The notes under the pieces were generated by a model. It searched no databases. It had not been told where the DNA came from and saw only the letters and a list, made by a program, of their open reading frames with translations. Below, one piece after another: positions 1 through 24,003 of a stretch of 64,000 nucleotides of DNA. A program made the translations under genes and the position numbers. Origin of the DNA: Eutreptiella sp. 'Long Island Sound 2002' (Eukaryota > Euglenozoa > Euglenophyceae > Eutreptiales > Eutreptiaceae); the NCBI GenBank assembly GCA_964036045.1, contig OZ038378.1:56521498-56585497 (forward strand), read 5' to 3'. Positions within the stretch are counted from its first letter, which is position 1. Every line of letters starts with the position of its first letter.

Positions 1-3000
1 CAGCTCGCTCCTAGTTCGAGTCTTGATTACCGAGCTGGGTTTACCCTGTCGAGGTTTTACACCACCTTTTAGGGGCCAAGGCTGAGCAACACGTTTTAGC
101 AGCAACAGCAGCAGTAAGCAGAAGGTCCAAAAGTCCTTGCGACCACACCGCGGCTCAAAACCGGCATCCAAGTAGCTCAAAACGACCGGAGAGCAAAGGC
201 GCATCACCACAAACAAGTTTCGTTGCGTTTTGAGCCGCATAGCCCGGTCTACGGCCGATTTAGTGTCCAAAAATGGCCGTTTTTGGGCTGTTTTTGGCTG
301 TTTTCAGGACGATTGTCCTGAAAGTTCACGACGATCGCCGCTACGCCAAGCAGGTGTTTCCGATGAGGGCCATTGTTCTTTCATGGCGATTGGGCCATCA
401 AAGGAAGGCAAATGAGTGTTGAATAAGGCGTGTACCACGCCGTGGTGCCACGCAATGGTCCATTTTGAGGTGAAAATGGGCCGTTTTCCAGCCGCGTTTG
501 AGGACCATCGCCGTAACCATGGAGGCACATCTCTAAAGCAAGGGATCTTTCTTCAACGGTGATTTCCCATGCGTTACGCAAGACGAGGACCCAGCTCGGT
601 GCTAGTTCGAGTCTTGATTACCGAGCTGCGTTTACCCTGTCGAGGTTTTACACCACCTTTTAGGGGCCAAGGCTGAGCAACACGTTTTAGCAGCAGCAGC
701 AAGCAGCAGCAGCAAGTAGCAGCAGCAGCAGGCGAGTAAAAAGTCCTTGCGACCACACTGCGGCTCAAAACCGGCATCCAAGTAGCTCAAAACGACCGGG
801 GAGCCAAGGCGCATCACCACAGACAAATTTTGTTGCATTTTTAGCCGTCTAGCCCGTTCTACGGCCGATTTAGTGTCCAAAAATGGCCGTTTTTGGGCTG
901 TTTTCGGCCGTTTTCAGGACCATCGTCCTGAAAGTTCAGGACGATCGCCGCTACGCCAAGCAGGTGTTTCCGATGAGGGCCGTTGTTCTTCCATGGCAAT
1001 TGGGCTATCAAAGGATGGCAAATGGGTGTTCAATAAGGCGTGTACCACGCCATGGTGCGACGCAGTGGTCCATTTTGAGGTGAAAATGGGCCGTTTTCAA
1101 GCCGCGTTTGAGGACCATCGCCGTAACCATGGAGGCACATCTCTAAAGCAAGGGGTCTTTCTTCAACGGTGATTTCCCATGCGTTACGCAAGACTAGGAC
1201 CCAGCTCGGTCCTAGTTGGAGTCTTGATTACAGAGCTGGGTTTAGCCTGTCGAGGTTTTACACCACCTTTTAGGGGCCAAGGATGAGCTACACGTTTTAG
1301 CAGCAGCAAGCAGCAAGCAGCAAGCAGCAGCAGCAGCAAGCAGCAGCAGCAGGCGGTCCAAAAGTCCTTGCGACCACAGCGCGGCTCAAAACCGGCATCC
1401 TAGTAGCTCAAAACGACCGGGGAGCCAAGGCGCATCACCACAAACAATTTTTGCTGCATTTCGAGCCGTCTAGCCCGTTCTACGGCCGATTTAGTGTCCA
1501 AAAATGGCCGTTTTTGGGCTGTTTTCGGCTCTTTTCAGGACGATTGTCTTGGAAGTTCACGACGATCGCCGCTACGCCAAGTAGGTGCTTCCGATGAGGG
1601 CCATTGTTCTTTCATGACGATTGGGCCATCAAAGGAAGGCAAATGGGTGTTCAATAAGGCGTGTACCACGCCGTGCTGGAACGCAGTGGTCCATTTTGAG
1701 GTGAAAATGGGCCGTTTTCCAGCCGCGTTTGAGGACCATCGCCGTAACCATGGAGGCACATCTCCAAAGCAAGGGGTCTTTCTTCAACGGTGATTTCCCA
1801 TGCGTTACGCAAGACTAGGACCCAGCTCGGTCCTAGTTCGAGTCTTGATTACCGAGCTGGGTTTACTCTGTCGAGGTTTTACACCACCTTTTAGGGGCCA
1901 AGGATGAGCTACACGTTTTAGTAGCAGCAGCAAGCAGTAGGCGCATAAAAAGTCCTTTCGACCACACCGCGGCTCATAACGGGCATCCAAGTAGCTCAAA
2001 ACGACCGGGGAGCCAAGGTGCATTACCGCAAACAAGTTTCGTTGCGTTTTGAGCCGTCTAGCCCGTCTTACGGCCGATTTAGTGTCCAAAAATGGCCGTT
2101 TTTGGGCTATTTTTCAGGACGATCGTCCTGAAAGTTAACGACGATCGCCGCTACGCCAAGCAGGTGTTTCCGATGAGGGCCGTTGCTCTTTCATGGCGAT
2201 TGGGCTATCAAAGGATGGCAAATGGGTGTTCAATAAGGCGTGTACCACGGCGTGGTGCCACGCAGTGGTCCACTTGGGGTGAAAATGAGCCGTTTTCCAG
2301 CCGCATTTCAGGACTATCGCTACAAGCATCAGCAGGCGCTTAAAAAGACCTTGCAACCACACCGAGGCTCAGAACCGGCATCCAAGTAGCTCAAAACGAC
2401 CAGGGAGCCAAGGCGCATCACCACAAACAAGTTTCGTTGCATTTCGAGCCGTCTAGCCCGTTCTACGGCCGATTTAGTGTCCAAAAATGGCCGTTTTTGG
2501 GCTGTTTTTGGCTTTTTTTAGGACGATCGTCCTGAAAGTTATGGACGATCGCCGCTACGCCAAGCTGGTGTTTCCGATGAGGGCCGTTGTTCTTTCATGG
2601 CGATTGGGCTATCAAAGGATGGCAAATGGGTGGTCAATAAGGCGTGTACCACGCCGTGGTGCCACAGAGTGGTCCACTTGAGGTGAAAATGAGCCGTTTC
2701 CAGCCGCATTTCAGAACCATCGCGACAAGCATCTGCAGGCGCTTAAAAAGTCCTTGAGACCACACCGCGGCTCAAAACCGGCATCCAAGTACCTCAAAAC
2801 GACCGCGGAGCCAAGGCGCATCACCACAAACAACTTTGGTTGCATTTCGAGCCGTCTAGCTTGTTCTACGGCCGATTTAGTGTCCAAAAATGGCCGTTTT
2901 TGGGCTGTTTTTGGCTGTTTTCAGGACCTTGTAGTAGCCGCTATATTGTAGTTGAAAACCGGCATCAAGTAGCTCGAGGAAGCAAACGCGCATCACGGGA

Positions 3001-3115
3001 AACAGGTTTTGTACCGTTCCGAGCCGTCTAGCCTGTTTTACCGCTGAATTAGTGTCCAAAGATGGCCGTTTTTGGGTTGATTTCGGGTTTCCCGTGGTCC
3101 ATTTGGGGTGAATAA
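1..3115 (+). repeat. Left tandem array of ~0.6-kb satellite units (forward)
   Basis: Near-identical units begin at 1, 592, 1202 and 1823, with periods of 591, 610 and 621 bp. Two shortened units follow from about 2336 and 2738, then a divergent remnant at about 2946-3115. Each full unit holds a conserved block around CCTGTCGAGGTTTTACACC, an AGC-rich microsatellite of variable length (for example about 691-735 and 1298-1352), the block GGCCGTTTTTGGGCTG, and a copy, sometimes mutated, of the perfect 16-bp palindrome CAGGACGATCGTCCTG (clean at 2115-2130). The array starts at base 1, so it probably continues to the left. The same unit recurs inverted at 8531-12768. Short open frames of about 99 codons in some copies look incidental. 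Confidence 0.93.
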
Positions 3116-3200
3116 TGAGCGTTTTTGAGTTAGTGGTCAAGAGCGCACACGGTAGGAGCAAGCAGCTCGCAACACCCGTCAATCCATATGTGCCTTTGTT

Positions 3201-3222
3201 GCCATGTAGGCTTTCTCATGGC
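3201..3222 (+). other. Hairpin 1, stem GCCATG/CATGGC
   Basis: Six-bp perfect stem around the loop TAGGCTTTCT (3207-3216). An outer T-A pair extends it to 7 bp. Confidence 0.85.
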
Positions 3223-3250
3223 ATCCAAGCGGATTGTTATGTACCTTCCT

Positions 3251-3282
3251 TGGTTGCCGTGTAGGCTTTCTCACGGCAATCA
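3251..3282 (+). other. Hairpin 2, stem GCCGTG/CACGGC, extended
   Basis: The same loop (3262-3271) on the stem 3256-3261/3272-3277. Pairing continues outward to 11 bp with one G-T wobble. Relative to hairpin 1 the fourth stem pair has changed from A-T to G-C on both arms. Confidence 0.88.
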
Positions 3283-3360
3283 AACTAATATTGACTTTGT
3301 CCGATGAGGGAACACAAGTGTTTGTTTGATGAGTGCACTTGCTCCATATGTGCCATTGTT

Positions 3361-3382
3361 GCCACGTAGGCTTTCTCGTGGC
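3361..3382 (+). other. Hairpin 3, stem GCCACG/CGTGGC
   Basis: The loop at 3367-3376 is unchanged. Relative to hairpin 1 the fifth stem pair has changed from T-A to C-G on both arms, a second independent compensatory change. Confidence 0.87.
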
Positions 3383-3568
3383 ATCAAAACGTGCTTGTTA
3401 TGTGGGTACCTTGGTCGCCGTGTTAACGATTAGACAATCAAATGACTGCAAATGAGTGATGGAGAAGGCATCTTCCGCACCGCTGTGTCTTCCCGTGGTC
3501 CCTTTGGGGCGAAAAATGGGTAGGAGCAAGCACCTTGCAACACCCGTCAATCCATTTATGCCTTTGTT

Positions 3569-3590
3569 GCCATGTAGGCTTTCTCATGGC
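3569..3590 (+). other. Hairpin 4, stem GCCATG/CATGGC
   Basis: Second-copy equivalent of hairpin 1, with the loop at 3575-3584. Confidence 0.85.
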
Positions 3591-3622
3591 ATCCAAGCGG
3601 CTGTTATGTACGTACCTTGGTT

Positions 3623-3644
3623 GCCGTGTAGGCTTTCTCACGGC
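3623..3644 (+). other. Hairpin 5, stem GCCGTG/CACGGC
   Basis: Second-copy equivalent of hairpin 2, with the loop at 3629-3638. The outer TTGG/TCAA flanks again extend the pairing. Confidence 0.85.
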
Positions 3645-3727
3645 AATCAAAGTAATATTGACTTTGTCCGATGAGGGAACACAAGTGTTTGTTTGATGAG
3701 TGCACTTGCTGCATATGTGCCTTTGTT

Positions 3728-3749
3728 GCCATGTAGGCTTTCTCATGGC
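3728..3749 (+). other. Hairpin 6, stem GCCATG/CATGGC
   Basis: Positional equivalent of hairpin 3, but with the A-T stem variant. The loop is at 3734-3743. Confidence 0.85.
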
Positions 3750-3783
3750 ATCAAAACGTGCTTGTTATGTGGGTACCTTGGTC

Positions 3784-3805
3784 GCCGTGTAGGCTTTCTC
3801 ACGGC
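3784..3805 (+). other. Hairpin 7, stem GCCGTG/CACGGC
   Basis: Loop at 3790-3799. This is the last hairpin before the gene, about 130 bp upstream of the ATG at 3935. It is the intact counterpart of the damaged copy near 3412-3440. Confidence 0.85.
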
Positions 3806-3934
3806 AATCAAGCCATTTCACTTTCGAATGATGTTTGACCATGCTTTGATTAGTTCCCAATTTGTATCACTTTATGGACGCTTAGTTGCTATTTTTGTCA
3901 CCATCTTTTGGTGTGGAATTTATTATTTGGACAC

Positions 3935-4537
3935 ATGCCGAGGCCTTCACTGATCGACAAAGATTGTCATGATGTGGCTCGCCTATGGGGATGGAAGTGG
4001 GTACGCCAAGACAACCAAGACATGAAGGCCAAGGCGGTCATGCGGTGGACTTGTGCATCTTGTGGAGAATCCAAGAATCTACGGTTTGATAACATGAAGA
4101 AGTTTGGTCCGGAAGAGCACAAGTGTTCAAAACTATGTCCACCACAAGGGAAAGAGGATAATGCGAAAGGAAAAGACGGTCGCCCATCCGTCAGCACGTT
4201 GCATTGCAATCAACTTGCGGCCGAATATGGATGTGATGAGTTGGGGGTGCTTGTGGACAACGTCGTGCATGTAGACGAGTCCCTCATTTCCTCAATTTGT
4301 GTGATGCGTTGGCAATGTTGGGGTTGTACCACCAATTTTGATCGTACATACAACATGATGAAGAGTCGAGGCTTTGTTTGCTCCACTTGCAACACATCAC
4401 AATCTCAGGAGGACAAAAAGCGCGCAGGGCAAGCGGGCTCCAAGGAGAACAAGCAGCGGGCAGGGCAAGCGGGCGGTGTGGTGGCACCCCGGGAGGACAA
4501 GCAGCGGGCAGGGCAAGCGGGCTCCAAGGAGAACTAG
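3935..4537 (+). pseudogene. N-terminal Cys-rich part of the Helitron-like Rep, ends at in-frame TAG
   Basis: The first ATG of this frame is at 3935 (MPRPSLIDKDCHDVARLWG). About 140 residues follow with two Cys-rich blocks: WTCASCGESKNLRF...HKCSKLC, and about 60 residues later WQCWGCTTNF...FVCSTCN. Each has two Cys pairs spaced like a zinc ribbon, suggesting nucleic-acid binding. The frame then enters a 12-residue repeat and stops at TAG 4535-4537. It is the same frame as the large Rep segment at 4661-7753, so I read it as the original N-terminus of one protein now split by nonsense codons (4535 and 4607). An intron removing the stops cannot be excluded, but no clear splice sites flank them. 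Confidence 0.6.
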
Positions 4538-4816
4538 CAGCGGGCAGGGAAAGCGGGCTCCAAGAAGGACAAGCAGCGCGCAGGGCAAGCGGGCTCCAAG
4601 GAGAACTAGCAGCGGGTAGGGCAAGCGGGCTCCAAAGAGGACAACCAGCGCGCAGGGCAAGTGGGCTCCAAGGAGAAGAAGAAGCGGGCAGGGCAAGCGG
4701 GCTCCAAGGAGGACAAGCAGCGGGCGGGACAGGCTAGCCCTAAGGAGGACAAGCAACGGGCGGGGCAAGCAGGGTCTAAGGAGGATAAGCAAGGGGCAGG
4801 GCAATCTGGGGCCGTT
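4409..4816 (+). repeat. 36-bp tandem repeat encoding a KEDKQRAGQAGS-like dodecapeptide
   Basis: About eleven 36-bp units; the second carries a small insertion (GVVAPR in place of SK). The frame encodes a Lys/Gln/Gly-rich dodecapeptide between the zinc-binding-like region and the Rep core, probably a flexible basic linker. In two units the codon AAG is TAG, in the context GAGAACTAG, at 4535 and 4607. The shared context suggests one mutation copied by repeat expansion. The last units (from about 4709) are more diverged. Confidence 0.9.
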
Positions 4817-7753
4817 CGGCGTGCTTTGAATTATGCAGGTGAAACCTTGGCAAGCCAATCAACACAAGCCATTCAGCACACGTGGGAGAGAGGCGATGAG
4901 ATAGAACCGCCCGGATCCGTTGTGGATGAAGATGAGGAAGCCATGCTGCAATCGGTTGCAGGCCCATCACCTGATGAGTTTACGGGATCAAAGGTTGGCA
5001 CATCTCTTGCTTCAACTGTGAGAGGCTTTTGGGAGCAAACTGGAATGGATAGATTTCCCGTTCAACCTGCAGCCAACTTGGAGAGTTGTGAGTCTTTGGA
5101 GGCCTTGGTGCGAGCTATACTGGATGAGAAGGTGGACACCGTGAATATGGTGGCGTTGGCCAAAGAGTGGCACAAAAAAGTTGGAGTATGCGAGGACATT
5201 CAATCTTGCGGGTGCTGCGGAGTGAGAGATTTCCAACAAGTGAAGGAAGTGGAGGTATCCAAGTTGGACCTTTTAAGGTTGGACACGAAACAAGTTTCAT
5301 GGTACCACGGGATTCCCATTCAGTATCGCAAGTATGCTGCGGTCTTTGAACAAGACACAAGGCTATATTGGTTGCACCATGATCTTGTATCTAATGGTGC
5401 AGTGCAATTGTGTAATTCATGTCATCGGAGTTTGTTTCATCCAAAGAAAGGTCAAGTGCCACCAAATGCCATTGCTAGTGGCAAGCATTTTGGTAAGCGA
5501 TGCGACTTACCGGAGTTAACGGATTTGGAGGAGCGTATGTTGGGACCAGTGCGGACGACAGTTAACACCGTAAAGCTTGTTAGTGCCAAGAATGGTGCAA
5601 CATCGCAATGGGGTGTTCGAGGGCACGCTATTTCTGTACCGCATGATGGACCCGAAGTGTTGGCAGCACGTCTACCGGATGTAGAGGCTCTTGTGGGTAC
5701 AGAGGTCATTTTTGTGGGACCGCGCCGTGATGCGGAGGCTATGCGTCGTGATCAACACTGCAAAGAACGAGTAGAGCGAATCTTCACACCGCGATGGGAT
5801 GGATTGGTTCAATGGTTGCGAGTTTTGAAAGTGATCAATCCGGAATATGCCAACGTCGAAATCTTGGAGGTTGCACCACCTGAAGTGGTTGATTTTCCAA
5901 ATGCTGTATTTGACAATGTGTCCATTGGTGATGATCCGGATGTGATTGCAACCGAAAAGCAATCCGGTGCGGACATTGCAGGAGCAAGAAAAGGTGACTT
6001 GGATGATGGTGAGGTAATATTGGATGCTGTTATGCTGTCGGATGGAGCATTATTGAATCGAGATGGGAACGATGTGCCACAAGTTCTTCAATCTATCAAG
6101 GAGATGCTAGCGGACCGTCGTAACATTAGAGTTCGACGAGAAGAAGTTGCCATGAACGAGTTTGAGGCCAATGACCGCCTTTTGACGTTGTCCTTTCCCT
6201 CGTTGTTTATGTTTGGAAGTGGTATCAAGCGGCCATGTGGAGTTTCGGAAGCGGATACAAAGCACATGTTGTTGCAATATGATAATCGCTTTGCCGAAGC
6301 CCGCGACTTTTGTTTGTTGCTCTTTAACCAAAAGTGTCGCCACACAGCGTTGCGAAGCGTCAGGGATGCCATTTATGCCAATCCCAATCGAATGAAGGCA
6401 TTTGAGACGGCCATCAACACGCCCAATCTCGAGGAAGATTTGAAGAAGGCAGAAGCAAACCCCCAAGGAAAAGAAGCGCGACACCTTGTGCACACATTCA
6501 TGCCTTTGTTCCGGACTTGCCATGCAGCGGTGCCCTTCAGCACTTCGGAGCAGTATGCCGTGATGGGGAAGATGAATAGTATGATGTTGTTCTTTGGGCC
6601 TCCAAGTCTCTTCTACACGGTTGCACCAAATGATATAGACAACGAGTTGTCTTTATGTTTGTCGATGGGTGATCGCCAAGCTCGTGTTCCATTGCCGGAG
6701 CTTTCGCGGCGATTTGAAGCGTTATCCAAGAACCCTGTGGCCGCCGCACACATTTTTGAGCGACAAGTGCGGGCTTTCTTGGAGGTTTTGCTAGGTCTTC
6801 CGAATTCCAAGCAAACCAAGAAAGATCGTGCGGTGTGCAACCGTAAGAAGGGTCTATTTGGTACATGTGTGGCCCATTGCACATACTACGAGTGCCAAGG
6901 CCGAGGCTCTCTCCATTTCCATGGTCTCTTTTGGGGTGGCATTCCCCCATGGTTGTTGGACATGGTTGTGGGGAATGACGAGCTTGTGAAAGCTGTGGCC
7001 ACGGTGTTGGATCAACAAATATGTGCCGCATTGGATGCCCACATTCACCAGGATTATGAGCATAGACTAAAGCACAAGGTTGAAGCCCCACGTATGCTAG
7101 AGGAGAAGCAACTTTTGCCTCCATTGCCGGATGACCCCCATGAAGCGGCACGGGAAATTGAACAGTTTGCCTCCAAGGTCTTTGGACACATTCAAATCCA
7201 CAGGTGTCTCATTGCTAGTTGCGGTAAACCACCAGGAGGAAAGAGTGGGTGCCGTTTTGGGTTGCCTCGTGCAGCAGGAGAAGGGTACAGTGAAACACGG
7301 CCACATGTCTTTGTGGTGTATCATACCCCTTCAGGAAGGCACAACATCCGGATGTATGAGTCGGAAGTAGAATTTGATGCCAATGATGAAAAGGTAAGCT
7401 GTGTTCTCGTCATATGGGAGTTGCGGCGGCCACATCCTTGTGATGGACGTGTGGTTGAAACCAACAAACTCTTGGCCTACTTGTATGCTAGCAACACAAA
7501 TGTGCAATTCCTCGGAGGTGAGGACGTGCTAGTTGCTGTGGCCAAATACCTTGTTGGTTACTGTAGCAAGAATCCGGTAAGGATTGCCAATGTGTTGAGC
7601 ACAATTCGTCAAGTGACTCGTGAGGTGGACAAAATGGACACCACGGAGTTTGCACAACCCGGAGAGAAGAAGGCCTTGTTGCTAAAGCGCATCATCAACT
7701 CGTTGGACAAGAAGGTGGAATTTGGTGCGCAAAGATCGTGTTTCCCATTTTGA
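4661..7753 (+). CDS. Helitron-like replication initiator (HUH Rep), no helicase domain
   Basis: Recognised by a series of Helitron Rep features. A DUF6570-like segment (LCNSCHRSL, about 5405-5560) precedes LSFPSLFMFG (about 6184), the LLLFNQK...FFGPPSLFYTVAPND region of Helitron_like_N, then YECQGRGSLHFHGLFWGG with the metal-binding HFH (His codons 6914 and 6920). YLVGY follows, with Tyr codons at 7547 and 7559, spaced as in two-tyrosine Reps. These would nick and join single-stranded DNA in rolling-circle transposition. The open stretch begins at 4610 after a TAG. The first in-frame ATG is 4943, which still leaves about 936 codons with every motif. It stops at TGA 7751-7753 just past LLLKRIINSLDKKVEF, where canonical Helitron proteins continue to a Pif1 helicase. 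That part is missing or lost to a frameshift. Confidence 0.88.
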   Translation: MGSKEKKKRAGQAGSKEDKQRAGQASPKEDKQRAGQAGSKEDKQGAGQSGAVRRALNYAGETLASQSTQAIQHTWERGDEIEPPGSVVDEDEEAMLQSVAGPSPDEFTGSKVGTSLASTVRGFWEQTGMDRFPVQPAANLESCESLEALVRAILDEKVDTVNMVALAKEWHKKVGVCEDIQSCGCCGVRDFQQVKEVEVSKLDLLRLDTKQVSWYHGIPIQYRKYAAVFEQDTRLYWLHHDLVSNGAVQLCNSCHRSLFHPKKGQVPPNAIASGKHFGKRCDLPELTDLEERMLGPVRTTVNTVKLVSAKNGATSQWGVRGHAISVPHDGPEVLAARLPDVEALVGTEVIFVGPRRDAEAMRRDQHCKERVERIFTPRWDGLVQWLRVLKVINPEYANVEILEVAPPEVVDFPNAVFDNVSIGDDPDVIATEKQSGADIAGARKGDLDDGEVILDAVMLSDGALLNRDGNDVPQVLQSIKEMLADRRNIRVRREEVAMNEFEANDRLLTLSFPSLFMFGSGIKRPCGVSEADTKHMLLQYDNRFAEARDFCLLLFNQKCRHTALRSVRDAIYANPNRMKAFETAINTPNLEEDLKKAEANPQGKEARHLVHTFMPLFRTCHAAVPFSTSEQYAVMGKMNSMMLFFGPPSLFYTVAPNDIDNELSLCLSMGDRQARVPLPELSRRFEALSKNPVAAAHIFERQVRAFLEVLLGLPNSKQTKKDRAVCNRKKGLFGTCVAHCTYYECQGRGSLHFHGLFWGGIPPWLLDMVVGNDELVKAVATVLDQQICAALDAHIHQDYEHRLKHKVEAPRMLEEKQLLPPLPDDPHEAAREIEQFASKVFGHIQIHRCLIASCGKPPGGKSGCRFGLPRAAGEGYSETRPHVFVVYHTPSGRHNIRMYESEVEFDANDEKVSCVLVIWELRRPHPCDGRVVETNKLLAYLYASNTNVQFLGGEDVLVAVAKYLVGYCSKNPVRIANVLSTIRQVTREVDKMDTTEFAQPGEKKALLLKRIINSLDKKVEFGAQRSCFPF

Positions 7754-8444
7754 ATTTCTCTCCAATGAAGAAGCGGCAAAAAATACACTTCTTTCCACTC
7801 CAAGTGCACCACTCTGCCCCATTGCATGTGACTTGCAAACACAAATGGACCGTTTGTTTGGATGGCATGCCAAATTCCCGCACAGCCGTCATACAACCAC
7901 TAGTAGTATCAATGCCTTTTTGCGCAAACATGGTGGGCATTTTGATGTGACAATGCTCTTGCAAAAATGTGCCAATGTAGAATTGAACATTCATATTTTC
8001 GAAGATCTTATCTCTCGGATGTTACACGTTACCAATACCAATGACCGGGTTGATGTGCTCATGGCACATCGCTCCAATTTTCCATTCCCGGAATTGGAGG
8101 CGTTCTTGGATGGAATGACAGTAGCATGCATGAACGATCTCATTCCCACACTAGCGCCACCGGTCACACCATCACCACAAACACCAAACACCCCGCGGAA
8201 TCCGAGCTCCGAGATTTTAGTCATTCCTTTCGAACTCCCATCCGATGAGGATGGCAAGGAGGAGGACTCACCACCAAAGAGAGCATCCGAAAAGAAAAGT
8301 ACTTCAAACAGAAAAACCGCCAAAAAGGCCCTGTTTGGAAAAGGATCGCGCACCCGCAATGTCCGCAGCACAAAGGAAGACCGTCACGCCCGAGAACTCC
8401 GAAAAAAAAACTCCAAAAATGTTAGAGGTCCCCAAATTGGGTGA
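7722..8444 (+). CDS. Overlapping frame downstream of Rep, possible frameshifted C-terminus
   Basis: This frame is +1 relative to Rep and overlaps its last 32 bases. It has no ATG at the overlap (first ATG 7845), so it is more likely a continuation by frameshift, or a spliced exon, than an independent gene. The text VRKDRVSHFEFLSNEE could correspond to the part of Helitron Reps just after the tyrosine helix, but I cannot confirm homology. About 100 residues of unknown globular sequence follow. The tail is Pro/Ser-rich (PPVTPSPQTPNTPRNP), then acidic (SDEDGKEED), then strongly basic, like a nuclear-localisation tail. Near 8280-8469 another frame (KTVTPENSEKKTPKMLEVPK...DTDDE, ending TAG 8467-8469) reads at least as naturally, so a second frame change is possible. 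No helicase motifs are visible. Confidence 0.5.
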   Translation: MVRKDRVSHFEFLSNEEAAKNTLLSTPSAPLCPIACDLQTQMDRLFGWHAKFPHSRHTTTSSINAFLRKHGGHFDVTMLLQKCANVELNIHIFEDLISRMLHVTNTNDRVDVLMAHRSNFPFPELEAFLDGMTVACMNDLIPTLAPPVTPSPQTPNTPRNPSSEILVIPFELPSDEDGKEEDSPPKRASEKKSTSNRKTAKKALFGKGSRTRNVRSTKEDRHARELRKKNSKNVRGPQIG

Positions 8445-8496
8445 AGCCAATGATACGGACGATGAGTAGTTCGGTTCATCATTTGTGTCCCTCACC

Positions 8497-8528
8497 ACAT
8501 GCGCATGTAGGCTTTCTCATGTGCGTGT
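8497..8528 (+). other. Right-hand hairpin with the same TAGGCTTTCT loop
   Basis: Loop at 8508-8517. The stem pairs 8497-8507 with 8518-8528 over 11 bp including two G-T wobbles. The outer stem sequence differs from all left-side hairpins while the loop is identical. It lies about 30 bases after the last candidate stop codon and 2 bases before the inverted satellite array, consistent with a 3' subterminal hairpin or a transcript-end structure. Confidence 0.87.
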
Positions 8529-8530
8529 AC

Positions 8531-11500
8531 CTCGACAGGGTAAACCCAGCTCGGTAATCAAGACTCGAACTAGGAGCGAGCTGGGTCCTAGTGTTGCGTA
8601 GCGCATTGGAGATCACCGTTGAGGAAAGACTGCTTGCTTTTGAGATGTGCCTCCACGGTTGGGACAATCGTCCTGAAACACAGCTAGAAAACGGCTTGTT
8701 TTCACCGCAAAATGGACCACCGCGTGGCACCACAGCGTCTGACACGCCTTCTTGAACACCCATTGGCCATCCTTTGATATCCCAATCGCCATGAAAGAGC
8801 AACGGCCCTCATCGGAAACACCTGCTTGGCGCAGCAGCGATCGTCCTGAACTTTCAGGACAATCGTCCTGAAAACAGCCGAAAACAGCCCAAAAACGGCC
8901 ATTTTTGGACACTAAATCGGCCGTAGGACGAGCTAGACGGCTCGAAACGCAACAAAACTTGTTTGTGGTGGTGCGCCTTGGCCCCCGGTCATTTTGAGCT
9001 AGTTGGATGCCGGTTCTGAACCGCGGTGTGGTCGCAAGGACTTTTGAACCGCCTGCTTGCTGCTGCTGCTGCTGCTGCTAAAACGTGTAGCTCATCCTTG
9101 GCCCCTAAAAGGTGGTGTAAAACCTCGACAGGGTAAACCCAGCTCGGTAATCAAGACTCGAACTAGGACCGAGCTGGGTCCTAGTGTTGCGTAATGCCTT
9201 GGAGATCGCTGCGGGTGAAAGACCGCTTGCTGTGCAGATTTGCCTCCACATTCAGGATGATCGTCGTGAAACACGGCTCAAAAACGGCTCGTTTTCACCT
9301 CAAAATGGACCACTGCATGGCACCACAGCGTGGTACACGCCTTATTGAACACCAATTTGCCATCCTTTAATAGCCCAATGGCCATGAAAGAACAACAGCC
9401 CTGATGGGAAACACCTGCTTGGTGCAGCGGCGATGGTCGTGAAGTTTCAGGACGATCATCCTGAAAACAGCCCAAAACAGCCCCAAAATGGCCATTTTTG
9501 GACACTAAATCGGCCGTAGAATGGGCTAGACGGCTCGAAACGGCACGAAACCTGTTTGTGGTGATGCGCCTTGGCTCCCCGGTCGTTTTGAGCTACTTTG
9601 ATGCACGTTTTGAGCCGCGGTGTGGTCGCAAGGACTTTTTATGCGCCTATTGCTGCTTGCTGCTGCTTGCTGTTGCTGCTTGCTAAAACGTGTAGCTCAG
9701 CCTTGGCCCCTAAAAGGTGGTGTAAAACCTTGACAGGGTAAACCCAGCTCAGTAATTCAGACTCGAACTAGGACCGAGCTGGGTCCTAGTCTTGCCTAAC
9801 GCATGGGAAATCACCGTTGAAGAAAGACCGCTTGCTTTAGAGGTGTGTCCTGAAACACGGCTCAAAAACGGCTCCTTTTTACCTCAAAATGGACCACCGC
9901 GTGGCACCACGGTGTGGTACACGCCTTATTGAACACCCATTTGCCATCCTTTGATAGCCCAATCGCCATGAAAGAGCAACGGCCCTCATCGGAAACACCA
10001 GTTTGGCATAGCGGCGATCGTCCTGAACTTTCACGACGATCGTCCTGAAAACGGCCGAAAACAACCCAAAAACGGCCATTTTTGGACACTAAATGGGCCG
10101 TAGAACCGGCTAGACGGCTCGAAACGCAACGAAACTTGTTTGTGGTGATGCGCCTTGGCTCCCCGGCCGTTTTCAGCTACTGGGATGCCGGTTTTGAGCC
10201 GCGGTGTGGTCGCAAGGACTTTTGGGGCGCCGCTGCTGCTTGCTGTTCCTGCTAAAAGGTGTTGCTTAGCCTTGGCCCCTAAAAGGTGGTGTAAAACCTC
10301 GACAGGGTAAACCCAGCTCGGTAATCAAGACTCGAACTAGGACCGAGCTGGGTCCTAGTCTTGCGTAACGCATGTGAAATCACCGTTGAAGAAAGACAGC
10401 TTGCTTTAGAGATGTGCCTCCATGGTTACGGCGATTGTCCTGAACCACGGCTCAAAAACGGCTCATTTTCACGTCAAAATGGACCACGGCGTGGCACCAC
10501 GGCGTGGTACACGCCTTATTAAACACCCATTGGCCATCCTTTGATAGCCCAACCGCCATGAAAAAACAACGGCCCTCATCGGAAACACCGGCTTGACGTA
10601 GCGGCGATCGTCCTGAACTTTCAGGACGATCGTCCTGAAAACAGCCCAAAACAGCCCAAAAACGGCCAAAAACAGCCCAAAAGCGGCCATTTTTGGACGC
10701 TAAATCGGCCGTAGCACGGGCTAGATGGCTCGAAATGCAACGAAACCTGTTTGTGGTGATGCGCCTTGGCTCCCAGGTCGTTTTGAGCTACTTGGATGCC
10801 CGTTTTGAGCCGCGGTGTGGTCGCAAGGACTTTTGGACCTTCTGCTGCTTGCTGCTGCTTGCTGCTGTTGCTGCTAAAACGTGTTGCTCATCCTTGGCCC
10901 CTAAAAGGTGGTGTAAAACCTCGACAGGGTAAACCCAGCTCGGTAATCAAGACTCGAACTAGGACCGAGCTGGGTCCTAGTCTTGGGTAACGCATTGGAG
11001 ATCACCGTTGAGGAAAGACGGCTTGCTTTCGAGATGTGCCTCCACGGTTGGGACGATGGTCCTGAAACGCGGCTGGAAAACGTCTCATTTTCACCTCAAA
11101 ATGCACCACTGCGTGGCACCACGGCGAGGTACACGCCTTATTGAACACCCATTTGCCACCCTTTAATACCCCAATCGTCATGAAAGAACAACGCCCCTCA
11201 TCGGAAACACCGGCTTGACATAGCGGCGATCGTCCTGAACTTTCAGGACGATCGTCCTGAAAACGGCCGAAAACAGCCAAAAAACGGCCATTTTTGGACA
11301 CTAAGTTTTGGGGCGTAGAACCAGCTAGACGGCTCGAACCGCAACGAAACTTGTTTGTGGTGATGCGCCTTAGCTCCCCGGTCGTTTTGAGCTACTTGGA
11401 TGCCGGTTCTGAGCCACAGTGTGGTTGCAAGGACTTTATAAGCGCCTGCTGCTTGCTGCTGCTGCTTGCTGCTTGCTGCTGCTAAAACGTGTTGCTCACC

Positions 11501-12768
11501 CTTGGCCCCTAAAAGGTGGTGTACAACCTCGATAGGGTAAACCGAGCTCAGTAATCAAGACTCGAACTAAGACCGAGCTGGGTCCTAGTCTTGCGTAACG
11601 CATTGGAGATCACCGTTGAAGAAAGACCGCTTGCTTTAGAGATGTGCCTCCACGGTGACGACGATGGTCCTGAAACACGGCTCAAAAATGGCTCATTTTC
11701 ACCTCGAAATTGACCACCCTGTGGCACCACGGCATGGTACATGCCGCATTGAACACCCATTTGCCATCATTTGACAGGCCAATCGCCACGGAAGAACGAC
11801 GGCCCTCATTGCAAACGCCCACTTGACACACCGGCGATCGTCCTGGGTGTTGAGGACGATCGTCCTGAAAGCAGCCAAAAATACCCAAAAACGGCCATTT
11901 TTGGACACTAAATCGGCCGTAGAACGGGCTAGACGGCTGGAAATGCAACGAAACTTGTTTGTGGTGATGCGGCTTGGCTCCCCGGTCATTTTGAGCGACT
12001 TGAATGTCGGTTTTGAGCCGCGGTGTGGTCTCAAGGACTTTTTAAGCGCCTGCTTGCTGCTGCTTGCTGCTGCTGCTGCTGCTGCTGCTTGCTGAAGCGT
12101 GTAGCTCAGCCTTGGCCCCTAAAAGGTGGTGTAAAACCTCGACAGGGTAAATCCAGCTCGGTAATCAAAACTCGAACTAGGACCGAGCTGGGTCCTAGTC
12201 TTGCGTAACGCATTGCAGATCACCGTTGAAGAAAGACCGCTTCCTTTAGAGATGTGCCTCCATGGTTACGACGGTTGTCGTGAACCACAGGTGGAAAACG
12301 GCTCATTTTCACCTCAAAATGGACCACGGCGTGGCACCACGGCGCGGTACACGCCTTATTGAACACCCATTTGCCATCCTTTAATAGCCCAATTGCCATG
12401 AAAGAACAACGGCCCTCATCGGAAACACCTGCTTGGCGTAGCGGCGATCGTCCTGAACTTTCAGGACGATCGTCCTGAAAACAGCCGAAACCAGCCCAAA
12501 AACGGCCATTTTTGGACACTAAATCGGCCGTAGAACGAGCTAGAAGGCTCAAAATGCAACAAAACTTTTTTGTGGTGATGCCCCTTGGCTCCACGGTCAT
12601 TTTGAGCTACTTGGATGCCGGTTTTGAGCCGCGGTGGGGTCTCAAGGACTTTTTAAGCGCCCGCTTGCTTGCTGTTGCTGCTTGCTGCTGTTGCCGCTAA
12701 AACGTGTAGCTCATCCTTGGACCCTAAAAGGTGGTGTAAAACCTCGACAGGGTAAACCCAGCTCGGTG
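8531..12768 (-). repeat. Right tandem array of the ~0.6-kb satellite, inverted
   Basis: Seven units begin with CTCGACAGGGTAAACCCAG or a one-base variant, at 8531, 9124, 9729, 10298, 10920, 11528 and 12138. A 25-bp partial unit at 12743-12767 closes the array. Periods are 569-622 bp. It is the reverse complement of the 1-3115 array, with CTG-rich microsatellites in place of AGC (for example about 9059-9078 and 12052-12092). The unit-to-unit differences are mostly microsatellite length and point changes. Open frames of 99-126 codons in some copies (8613-8912, 11002-11301, 12220-12600, all minus) share the same ending but are disrupted elsewhere. Confidence 0.93.
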
Positions 12769-13010
12769 ATAATCTTTAATTAATATCTCAAAAATTAATG
12801 GATTTGTATTAATATTAAGCTGAAAAAATTAAGCGAACCGCTCCCAAAACTAACCCAAACAAAAACATGCGCCACCAACAGCTCAGTGTAACACGGATGG
12901 GGGGTGGGGGGTTGTGCCTCACCATATGGGCACCCGCGAGAGGGAGGGGGGGGGGGCAACTTGCGGGGAGGGGGTCACCAACAAAACCTTGTGCAGAACG
13001 TGTTGCACTG
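12769..13010. other. AT-rich stretch followed by a G-rich stretch, no gene seen
   Basis: Directly after the array the sequence turns AT-rich (about 12769-12840), then G-rich with a run of about ten G near 12945-12954. I see no coding or RNA feature. Confidence 0.6.
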
Positions 13011-20836: not shown

Positions 20837-23399
20837 CTGCATGGACATGTGGGTGTTGGGCATGAGCGACAGGGGTAGGCACAGGATTCTAGACTTGGGG
20901 GCATGGGTCTATTCAAGTCCCAATCGCTCGGGTGCAGGGAAGGCCAGGAGTTACAGGAAACGGTCACAGGCAGGGATGCATTGGAAACGAGGGGGCCCAG
21001 AGCAGTCACCTTGTTTCATGGCTTGATACAAGCCAATTCCACCCAAATTTGTCCCCTGTGAAAACGGAATCATTCCTGCACGTGGCGATGGGGCTTCACA
21101 TATGCGCGTGCCAACACCGTTGTCATCATACCACTTTGTCTGTGTGGCTACAACTTTGGTTGGGCATCAATATCTATCTAATCCGTGATACCACATGTCT
21201 TCCCCACGTCTTCCCCACCACCATGTACCACCATCATTTGTGTCGGCTGCCACAAAAGCGGCCACCATGTTCGAGATTGCCCCACTGCTGCTAGTTCACC
21301 CTCTGGACGTGCGGTGCAAGAGCCAGACCCGTGTTGGTGGTGTGTTGAAAGGGAGCTGTGGCTTCGGTTTTATAATTGGTGCCTCAATGAGGTGCCCCAA
21401 GCTATCCGCCACGGGAACGATACAACGTCCAAAAGAATATGAAATTCAAAAATCTCCTATTACGTGAGCATGCCCCTGCCCATGGTGATGGCAACTACCC
21501 TTGGGGTTGAAGGGAGATACTCCTTTCCCTTTCCCCGTCACTGTCACTCACTTGATGCCCCAAAATGTCCCATGAATAGTTGGGCAGGGTACAAACCATC
21601 GTTACACGGTTTGTCTCAGTAACCTGCCACATTGGCAATAGGTCATGCTCAGACGAGTACAGCTGGTGTGCACTACACCATACACCATGAAAAGGGTGCT
21701 TGATAAAGCAATGCGTCAAAGTGAGGTGCACATCAGGCCGCCCTGTCAATGTGGGCCAGGGTACAGAGACCACTGGCGTTCATTGGGGATGTGCATGCGT
21801 AAGATGGGCACTGCGTGGTTATTCCTGTTGTCATCACCTACCCCCATCCCTCTTTCCCGAGTCTGGGTGCTGGTGATGGGTCCTCCAAACCATGTTGCAT
21901 GAGAGCTGCATGTTTGCGTGTGTGCATACTGTGGATGAGGGGTTGGGACTGCTGTGGGGTCTTTGTAGGGCATGGACATGGGATCAAACCAGGAATTTTC
22001 TCAAAAAAGAGGGGTACCCTATCATGCCACTCGTGCATGACGATTTCAGCTGCTGATTTCAGCTACGCGTCACAATATGCAAAAATGTCTCCATTTCACT
22101 GGGAACAAGTTTGAGTGGTTACAAATGTGGAAAAAGGTAGGTTTGAAATTATGGGGTCAAACCGGGTTGCACCCTGCGACACATCAAATATGGTGCAAAT
22201 ATGCCCTTGGCTGGCCCAGTGGCTGCAACTGATTTTCTGAGTGGCTGTGCACTCTCGTCACATAGCATAGGTGCCTTTCTGTGGGAGAAGCGCACAGTGC
22301 CTCGTGACCAAGAGGGGGGCACAGGCAATACCGGGCCCCTGCCCATCCCCTCTACTCCAGCTGCGTCCATAAAGACCACCACGGAGGCCTACAAAGGTGC
22401 ATAAATGTACTGTACTACACATCCCTCCCCCTGGTGCGGCAGCCGACCAGAGTTCTTTATATGGTTCAGTATCAGAGGGAGAAGAAAAAAAATTGAAACT
22501 ATGGTACGAACCTGCAAGGGGAACAAACACAGACACACACGTGCGTCTGCACACAAAGGGTGAAAACATGCGCACACACAATACACCACATCAGAGCCAC
22601 AGAATCCCCAAAGCCATACAATGCCCCAGCCTACTCAGCAGCGCCCTGGCGCTGGCCCTGACTGCAGCTCCCAAGCAACTTCAGCGCTGGTGGTTGCAGC
22701 AACCAGCAGCGCTCCGGAACCTGACCAGCAGAACCTGACTGTATCAACACCGACCGTCTCACCCCCGTGGTATTGTCAAAGGGTGCCAAGACTTAAGGCA
22801 GACAGGCATACAGGGCACCGGGGGCGAAAACAGCGAGTGGGCCATAAATGCAAAGCGAGAAAAGCTACACTCGGCACTGAGCAAATGGGAGAGGCAGGGA
22901 GGGCAGGGGGTCGGTATGACGCGTAGTCAACGCCATCCGATGCGCTGTACACACCGGTGGGCTAGAAGCTGAGCATGAAGCACATCTACAATCGAGGGAA
23001 GTCACCCTGCAAGATCACTGATAGGCAGGGCTATCCTTAAGACCAAAAAAAAGCCGGCAGAGGGACCTCATAAAGCAAATTGATCTGGCAGTGTCCACCG
23101 TCACCAGCCACCCGGGAGGGGCGGGGGGAGGGGGGGAAGGGTAGCCAACTTTCTCACTGACCTTTGTGTGCTTGCCGTCAACGAGGCAAGTGAAGCCACT
23201 CGAATCTCCGCAGAGCCAGCCGGCGAGCAACTGCAATCCATCATCGGCAAACCGGTGGCCATCACGTGCCATCAGATAAGTGCCAACCTCCATCGAGCCG
23301 AGCTCTGACACAGACGGCCTTATGTTGTCCTTCGTGAAAAACAAGAAGAATACTCCCGTTCCTAAAGGGCGGCCCTGCTGATAGGACAGGGAGCAGCAC
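20837..23399 (-). other. Probable ~2.56-kb intron of the CNBD gene
   Basis: GT at 23399-23398 and AG at 20838-20837 bound this interval, with matching phase on both sides. It contains no recognisable exon on the minus strand. It does contain a plus-strand CCHC zinc-knuckle fragment (21239-21280) and a poly-G/purine stretch near 23118-23141 (minus-strand CCCC-rich). Its length exceeds the other probable introns here, so an insertion into an originally shorter intron is possible. Confidence 0.5.
21185..21442 (+). pseudogene. CCHC zinc-knuckle fragment (gag-like), retroelement remnant
   Basis: The frame contains CVGCHKSGHHVRDC at 21239-21280, which fits C-x2-C-x4-H-x4-C exactly. This motif is typical of gag-type nucleocapsid domains and of some cellular RNA-binding proteins. 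The rest (WWCVERELWLRFYNW and so on) is unrecognised, and the frame is short and lies in a probable intron. The match is only one short motif, so chance is possible. Confidence 0.35.
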
Positions 23400-23815
23400 C
23401 TGTTCTTCGCCCGAATCACTACGTCCACCGACCCGGAGGTGAGCACGTACAAGACGTCCGACACATCGCCTCCATGGCAAATGTAATCCCCAGCATCGAA
23501 AGCCACACAGAACAACTTGTTGATGAAGCTGATCAGAATCTCCTCAGGCCAGCCAGCAAACAGCGGACCTGTTCCCTGCAGCTGTTCGTTGGTTAGCCGT
23601 TTCGTGTTCTCCAGTGCCTTTGAGATCCGCTCCTCCCTCTCCCGCTTGCGCTTCTGGCGGTTGGTGAAGCGGCGGAGGAGGGGGATCACCAGATGTAGGA
23701 ACTGCCACCGCTGTTGCTTCTGTTCGTGGATCTCCCAATACTTCCGCACCTGTGTATGGTCCGCAGGGACACAACAGGGTCTCACCGAGCGGGTGAAAAG
23801 ATGGACCAACAGACC
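23400..23815 (-). CDS. Exon: basic linker and N-terminal half of first cyclic-nucleotide-binding domain
   Basis: The acceptor TGCCAATTTCAG precedes 23815, and the exon ends at 23400 before GTGCTG. A basic helix (LRRFTNRQKRKREREERI) is followed by LQGTGPLFAGWPEEILISF and INKLFCVAFDAGDYICHGGD. These correspond to the helix A and first beta strands of a CNBD, and VSDVLYVLTSGSVDVVI leads into the split site. An internal GTGAG...CACAG segment (23785-23750, 36 bp, in frame) could be either coding or a tiny intron. Upstream exons are not identified. Together with 20653-20836 and 19416-19889 it suggests a multi-CNBD, possibly channel-like membrane protein. Confidence 0.72.
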
Positions 23816-23957
23816 CTGAAATTGGCAGAAAAAGGAGCTGTGAGATCCATACACAGATGCCCTTAGGCTGTGCCTGGAAAAGCGGACCTTTCGCCGCAGA
23901 TTTCGTGCTCCATTGTGCAACTGTGGACCACTTGAATGCACGTGGATCTCGTATAGC

Positions 23958-24003
23958 CATGTTTGTATGTATGCATGCATACAGGCATACATACATACAT
24001 AGT
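23958..24003. repeat. GTAT/CATA microsatellite with inverted symmetry
   Basis: GTATGTATGCATGCATAC is self-complementary in large part and runs into (CATA)n. Confidence 0.85.

What the first reader, a model, noticed from the sequence alone, without database searches (positions are those of the whole stretch)
3201..8528. Hairpin family with invariant loop and compensatory stem changes on both sides of a Rep gene
Eight intact hairpins share the loop TAGGCTTTCT exactly, while stems differ as GCCATG/CATGGC, GCCGTG/CACGGC, GCCACG/CGTGGC and a longer, different stem at 8497-8528. Two stem positions change on both arms together. Selection on both loop sequence and pairing is the simplest reading. Candidate roles are a Rep recognition or termination hairpin, a small hairpin mobile element, or an RNA element in the Rep transcript.
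Basis: seen in the sequence. Interest (0 to 1): 0.78.

Follow-up and report, generated by a model that had tools for sequence, protein, structure and literature searches.

The report
Strand-specific hairpin family inside a Helitron
A large eukaryotic genome carries a jumping gene of the Helitron type whose non-coding stretches hold dozens of tiny hairpins that keep the same bulge and loop while their stems change, which points to a folded single-strand signal rather than ordinary repeats.

Summary
In detail: eight exact TAGGCTTTCT loops with complementary arms lie at 3199-3807 and 8500-8525, and both stem changes are two-sided; the seven left copies are related by duplication. The gene is the N-terminal part of a Helitron transposase. 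In the 2.28-Gb genome (45 Rep places scored) the motif is broader: stem, one bulged T, two covarying pairs (AG/CT, GG/CC, GT/AC) and a GC(T/C)TT pentaloop. It recurs upstream of Rep, in a ~110-bp tandem array after RepHel, and after a second ORF. A scan fixing shape but no letters, in 43 oriented loci, found 162 such hairpins on the sense strand and 0 on the other. They are not the element's ends: those carry a 12-bp asymmetric inverted repeat and a different 3' hairpin, and a ~600-bp deletion derivative amplified into arrays has none of them where searched. I read it as a selected, strand-specific site folded in single-stranded DNA (45%) or RNA (33%); the data do not decide. Host element: Helitron2/Helentron-like. 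The hairpin family was not found in Rfam or in the eight paper searches made.

The parts
3199..3224 (+). hairpin A, stem TGCCATG/CATGGCA, bulged T, pentaloop GCTTT
3254..3279 (+). hairpin B, stem TTGCCGTG/CACGGCAA
3359..3384 (+). hairpin A variant, stem TGCCACG/CGTGGCA (two-sided change at pair 2)
3417..3437 (+). broken hairpin B: left arm GCCGTG and T kept, rest replaced; a breakpoint of the duplication lies in its loop
3567..3592 (+). hairpin A
3621..3646 (+). hairpin B
3726..3751 (+). hairpin A
3782..3807 (+). hairpin B
8500..8525 (+). hairpin H1 (full stem 8497-8528), first of the series that follows ORF2 in other copies; this copy is truncated at 8528
3151..3790 (+). local duplication: 3151-3423 and 3519-3790, 95% identical, with 3427-3520 resembling the terminal U unit (70%) between them
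3908..7753 (+). Helitron transposase frame, N-terminal part (Helitron_like_N, DUF6570), two in-frame TAG stops at 4535 and 4607; PIF1 helicase part missing
   Evidence: helicase present in L171
7722..8444 (+). ORF2, joined to the end of Rep homology at about 7737-7741, read as an internal deletion; in four other copies it lies about 9-12 kb downstream of Rep
1..3140 (+). tandem U units in Rep orientation: deletion derivatives made of the element's 5' and 3' ends; last part diverged
8529..12770 (-). U-unit array in the opposite orientation (7 units and 30 nt)

Best explanation
The window holds a decayed, internally deleted copy of a Helitron2/Helentron-like rolling-circle transposon (called F1 here). 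Shown: F1's non-coding segments carry many copies of one structured motif on the Rep-sense strand: an outer stem of varied sequence (usually closed by G-C), a single bulged T on the 5' side, two covarying base pairs, and a GC(T/C)TT pentaloop. Inferred: the motif is under selection as a folded single strand. Most likely mechanism (inferred, about 45%): it works in the single-stranded DNA that rolling-circle transposition displaces, as a recognition site for the element's own machinery, for example for loading Rep/helicase or starting second-strand synthesis on this long element. It is not the nick or termination site. The RNA reading (about 33%) is the main rival.
For: Folding as DNA: the five sense, core-bearing sequences of the seven folded share bulged T + 2 bp + GCTTT; z-scores -6.5 to -2.0. 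Scan with any bulge base, any pentaloop, outer stem of at least 6 WC: 192 sense hits, 162 of them T + GCYTT; 13 antisense hits, 0 of them (43 loci, 94.6 kb). Selected by loop letters: WC fraction per outer pair .83 .88 .86 .83 .73 .50 in 145 unique F1-locus sites versus .18-.53 in 17 background sites; inner pair 2-10 G-C 65, A-T 56, G.T 10, other 14; WC 0.77 vs 0.57 with arms shuffled, maximum 0.61. Covariation 0.525 vs 0.202 +/- 0.026 shuffled and at most 0.200 slid; two-sided changes at 10 of 10 pairs. Covariance model: 8 hits in the window; 267 in 26 loci, none in the 5 background and 4 F2 loci among them; 128 in 20 ORF2-downstream loci, all on the ORF2-sense strand by the listing. HUH-type Rep plus PIF1. 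IS608 transposase contacts an unpaired stem T and a loop T (PMC8266576, passage).
Against: The amplified ~600-bp U derivative has none of these hairpins where searched, so they are not needed in cis for its spread. Sense-strand bias and UTR-like placement fit RNA equally well. In H1 hairpins (18 distinct sequences, H1 and its neighbour copy) only the inner pair shows a two-sided change; most changes are G.T or A.C steps, and pair 7 is A.C in 12 of 18. RNAalifold on the 34 sequences predicted no structure. In one search two measures are not extreme: pairs with two-sided change 10 vs 8.2 shuffled (37/500), further pair types 27 vs 23.4 (19/500). The array hairpin alone folds only a little better than shuffles (z -1.98, 9 of 200; its antisense -1.81). 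No binding, expression or mobility data exist here.
Confidence: 0.45

Rival explanations
1. RNA element. The hairpins act in F1 transcripts: 5' leader, the region after RepHel, and the region after ORF2. A protein reads bulged T and pentaloop, for stability, export, translation control or cis-preference.
For: Sense strand only (162:0); in non-coding segments around the ORFs; absent from the gene-less U derivative where searched; G.T pairs are tolerated as class features (array pair 6 G.T in 111 of 132; H1 pairs 5 and 8).
Against: No transcript data. An array of 44 hairpin units over about 5 kb, running off the fetched stretch, would be an unusual untranslated region. G.T versus A.C in pairs 1-5 of 130 unique hairpins is only 30:24.
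Confidence: 0.33
2. Neutral by-product: satellite expansion plus palindrome correction (template switching between arms) keeps arms complementary without function.
For: Array units are tandem copies; two rearrangement breakpoints in the window fall at hairpins (3423-3427 and 8528); the 34 sequences are related and shuffling does not remove that.
Against: Does not explain one core (T..GCYTT..) shared by hairpins with unrelated stems, nor the 162:0 strand bias.
Confidence: 0.12
3. Rep recognition, nick or termination hairpin at the element's ends.
For: Hairpins occur on both sides of Rep; the 3' hairpin of Helraiser is described as a transposition terminator (PMC5876387, passages).
Against: The 3' end lies about 175-225 nt past the last core hairpin and has its own hairpin ACTAGGACC-CAGCTC-GGTCCTAGT 11 nt before the end; U units share both ends and lack the motif.
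Confidence: 0.06
4. Small hairpin mobile element that inserts by itself.
For: Many copies; several stems.
Against: Stems differ, so whole hairpins were not copied; in the 28 C1 loci fetched from the 100 listed places, armed sites sit with F1 parts or its array and 14 of 14 sites in the isolated loci lack arms.
Confidence: 0.02

Closest known systems
Helitron2 / FoHeli elements of Fusarium (PMC5148889, passages)
   Same: RepHel; asymmetric terminal inverted repeat with the 3' copy in a hairpin; non-CTRR end; multiple 5' termini combined with one 3' terminus
   Different: In those passages hairpins are described at termini; F1 has dozens of internal hairpins with a shared bulge and loop
Helentron / HINE / DINE-1 (PMC4067079 and PMC2374699, passages)
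   Same: subterminal inverted repeats, 3' stem-loop, non-autonomous deletion derivatives, tandem repeats inside; DINE-1 3' stems differ among species, read there as compensatory
   Different: The passages describe a 3' stem-loop (and in DINE-1 a 5' inverted repeat), not a shared loop over many stems; no endonuclease domain among the Pfam hits of the F1 pieces scanned
IS608 / REP hairpins read by HUH transposases (PMC8266576, passages)
   Same: strand-specific folded ssDNA, unpaired T in stem, loop bases read
   Different: bacterial enzymes; hairpins accompany cleavage sites; here internal and in large numbers
Single-strand origins of rolling-circle plasmids (recalled, no call)
   Same: hairpins with a conserved loop on the displaced strand used to start second-strand synthesis
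   Different: prokaryotic; not compared here

Membership tests
Helitron (superfamily) | Helitron_like_N Rep domain | tested here: met
   PF14214 E 2.7e-23
Helitron (superfamily) | two tyrosines three residues apart and an HUH-type motif | tested here: met
   KYLVGYC from codon 962 of the Rep ORF; HFH in GSLHFHGLFW (seen). Meaning of the motifs recalled
Helitron (superfamily) | PIF1-like helicase following Rep | tested here: met
   L171 PF05970 E 1.8e-23, just downstream of Rep copy C9:20914864; absent in the window copy
canonical Helitron1 | 3' CTRR end with hairpin 10-12 nt upstream | tested here: not met
   End reads CTTGA before T; a hairpin 11 nt before it is present
Helitron2 / Helentron | asymmetric terminal inverted repeat with 3' copy in a hairpin | tested here: met
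   ACCGAGCTGGGT at the inferred 5' end, ACCCAGCTCGGT in the 3' hairpin
Helitron2 | hairpin at both termini | tested here: inconclusive
   3' present; a 5' terminal hairpin was not analysed
Helentron | endonuclease domain fused to RepHel | tested here: inconclusive
   No such Pfam hit in the pieces scanned; no copy was scanned end to end; a DnaJ domain was seen
Helentron / Helitron2 | insertion in a T-rich or TT site | not tested
   No empty sites retrieved; the 3' boundary is followed by T in 6 of 6 copies aligned
Rfam RNA families | match to any described family | tested here: not met
   0 matches at E<=1 over 2900-8700; the array and the GT/AC class were not searched

The most novel reading that the evidence does not exclude
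A eukaryotic rolling-circle transposon carries an internal, strand-specific hairpin code: tens of stem / bulged-T / 2-bp / GCYTT-loop sites spread over its non-coding DNA and read as single strands by its own proteins, for second-strand synthesis, protection or RNA control, separate from the hairpin that marks its end.
Probability: 0.6. Interest if true: 0.82.

Novelty: new variant of a known kind. Interest (0 to 1): 0.7.

Why it matters
How Helitrons handle their single-stranded intermediate, and whether they need sites beyond their two ends, is little known (general knowledge, no call). A defined folded motif with dozens of natural variants, a matching transposase and a natural derivative without it makes this directly testable in vitro. 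If it is RNA instead, it would be a structured RNA family in transposons without an Rfam match in the stretch searched.

Tried and rejected
Bacterial and viral sources: no phage match, no relative of Rep in viral contigs, no solved structure by sequence. A viral pattern scan gave 3 stretches that were not followed up.

A first strand count showed 4-7 antisense hairpins; these came from my wrong orientation of L184. Corrected: 162 to 0. One search scanned L184 the wrong way too.

RNAalifold on the mixed alignment gave no structure; the pair count with a named structure and the covariance model were used instead, and the model's training set was chosen for pairing. The 34 sequences are 32 representatives chosen by loop letters alone plus two that I added for their stems (window 3367 and L156). 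The second loop type (TGTGCYTTAC) was selected by all its letters, so within that type the inner pairs say nothing.

A related RepHel family F2 does not carry this motif (0 model hits at E<=0.1 in 4 loci) but has its own repeated motif. Genome-wide counts of armed hairpins could not be had: the pattern requests CATGTAGGCTTTCTCATG and SGTAGGCTTTCTCS did not complete. The reversed pattern served as control for the bare loop only (2341 vs 1245).

Full report
What was checked. Two stem positions change on both arms. The seven left copies are related by duplication: 3151-3423 and 3519-3790 are 95% identical. They form A/B pairs about 55 bp apart, and one B copy is broken in its loop.

What the gene is. 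The ORF 4661-7753 matches Helitron_like_N (E 2.7e-23) and DUF6570; with the upstream frame (two TAG stops, 4535 and 4607) it is the N-terminal part of a Helitron transposase. The PIF1 helicase is missing here but follows Rep in another copy (L171). The genome search listed 45 places with Rep homology at 88% identity or more, the window included (plus one fragment row); only 45 of 1207 first-look candidates were scored, and four places (C11, C58, C161, C655) have the same scores and may be one locus repeated in the assembly. ORF2 (7722-8444) lies about 9-12 kb downstream of Rep, same strand, at C5:104.7, C5:119.4, C2:111.3 and C11:31.7 Mb. Against this, near Rep at C11:20.6 and C4:41.96 Mb an ORF2 copy lies upstream, which may belong to a neighbouring element. 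From the four cases I infer that the window copy lost helicase, array and spacer by a deletion at about 7737-7741. It is also cut at 8528, at the foot of the last hairpin, against an inverted array: in 18 of 20 sister loci the match to the window stops at 8528 while further hairpins follow (L184 was mis-oriented, L188 has no match).

Anatomy of the element, pieced from different copies. U-like terminal ~490-590 nt; 5' hairpin block; RepHel frame with a DnaJ-like domain near its end (PF00226, E 4.6e-9); a tandem array of ~110-bp units with a hairpin (44 units in L171, 41 in L172, running off the fetched stretches); ORF2; a 3' hairpin series. In other copies (L131, L133, L135, L138, L140, L146) an array is followed by a last hairpin of the type GCRTGGCAAG/CTTGCCATGT and, about 175-225 nt on, by the 3' end. 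How these copies relate to those with ORF2 was not settled; no copy was read end to end.

The motif. Hairpins of unrelated stems share more than a loop. DNA folding gives the same shape for the five sense core-bearing sequences tried. Selected by loop letters, 145 unique sites (452 in all) in F1-bearing loci pair at .83 .88 .86 .83 .73 .50 (Watson-Crick) over the first six pairs; 17 sites from background loci pair at .18 to .53. Positions 2 and 10 of the old "loop" pair as G-C 65, A-T 56, G.T 10, other 14. On 34 sequences, the covariation score is 0.525 against 0.202 shuffled (0 of 500) and at most 0.200 slid, with two-sided changes at all ten pairs; the counts of such pairs and of pair types are less extreme (37 and 19 of 500), and relatedness is not removed by the shuffles. 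A scan that fixes only one bulged base, two pairs, any five-base loop and an outer stem of six found 192 sense and 13 antisense hits in 43 oriented loci; 162 and 0 of them are T + GCYTT (corrects).

Where it occurs. Of 20 Rep copies fetched, 19 have 3-9 loop matches upstream, most with stems (L164 none). Of 20 ORF2 loci, 19 have model hits downstream, 128 in all at E<=0.1, on the ORF2-sense strand throughout (L188 none). In 26 further loci there are 267 hits, none in the five background loci and none in the four loci of family F2. No hit lies in the coding parts of the window, L171 or L172.

Why it is not the end hairpin. Six copies aligned at their 3' side share the type ACTAGGACCCAGCTCGGTCCTAGTTCGAGTCTTGA, and two of them (L133, L146) diverge right after the following T. 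The U unit (622 bp in the one used; 569-622 among those measured) makes the arrays on both sides of the window element. It equals the U-like 5' part of F1 (ending at U position ~490-590, most often 496) plus F1's last 49 nt. It has the inverted repeat ACCGAGCTGGGT / ACCCAGCTCGGT and the 3' hairpin but no model hit in the window arrays or in those of L138, L139, L142 and L146. So the ends exist, and the unit has multiplied, without the motif. That U is the 5' end of F1 is inferred from this pattern.

Mechanism. Strand bias, non-coding placement, covariation and a fixed bulge and loop point to a folded single strand. The displaced strand of rolling-circle transposition (polarity recalled) and the transcript have the same sense, so neither is excluded. 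I favour ssDNA because the element encodes an HUH enzyme, a class of which IS608's member reads an unpaired T and a loop T in a hairpin (passage in PMC8266576), and because a long element with many hairpins and a short derivative with none suits a role in handling long ssDNA. The RNA reading explains the absence from the gene-less derivative just as well. A mild G.T over A.C excess (30:24 in pairs 1-5 of 130) does not decide.

Known or new. Helitron2, Helentron and Helraiser papers seen in passages (PMC5148889, PMC4067079, PMC2374699, PMC5876387) and two oyster satellite/HINE papers (PMC8268682, PMC7492417; passages) describe hairpins or palindromes at or near termini and internal tandem repeats; I saw no internal hairpins with a shared bulge and loop. 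Paper searches were made; Rfam gave nothing over 2900-8700. Most subscription papers are outside this library.

Noticed in passing
L193, L194, L195, L196: A second RepHel family, F2 (P0006, 61% identical to F1; 30 of 26432 first-look candidates scored), carries its own repeated sense-only motif GGCTTTCGCTTCACCGCGATCCC: 22 copies at up to 6 mismatches in these four loci. Possible stem TCGC/GCGA; one two-sided change (T-A to C-G) at the same place in three copies, and a few one-sided breaks. It shares GGCTTTC with F1.
   Followed up: partly
L193, L194, L196: F2 copies are flanked by CCCTAACC-type, telomere-like repeats, and some lie near contig ends (C22 38.78-38.84 of 38.90 Mb; C1 0.59-0.64 Mb; C17 0.38 Mb), suggesting insertion in telomeric repeats; other copies lie elsewhere.
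   Followed up: no
L171:3448-3951: DnaJ-like domain (PF00226, E 4.6e-9) near the end of the F1 transposase frame.
   Followed up: no
window 26944-63994: 37 kb of an 85-bp satellite, about 435 copies.
   Followed up: no
window 3423-3427 and 8528: Two rearrangement breakpoints near the element fall in or at the foot of a hairpin.
   Followed up: no
window 3207, 3575, 3734, 8508: Four hairpins read ATG TAG, a start codon followed at once by a stop, across stem and bulge; not shared by all classes.
   Followed up: no
window 23015-23992 (-): Weak cyclic-nucleotide-binding domain match (PF00027, E 2.4e-4, below its cut-off).
   Followed up: no
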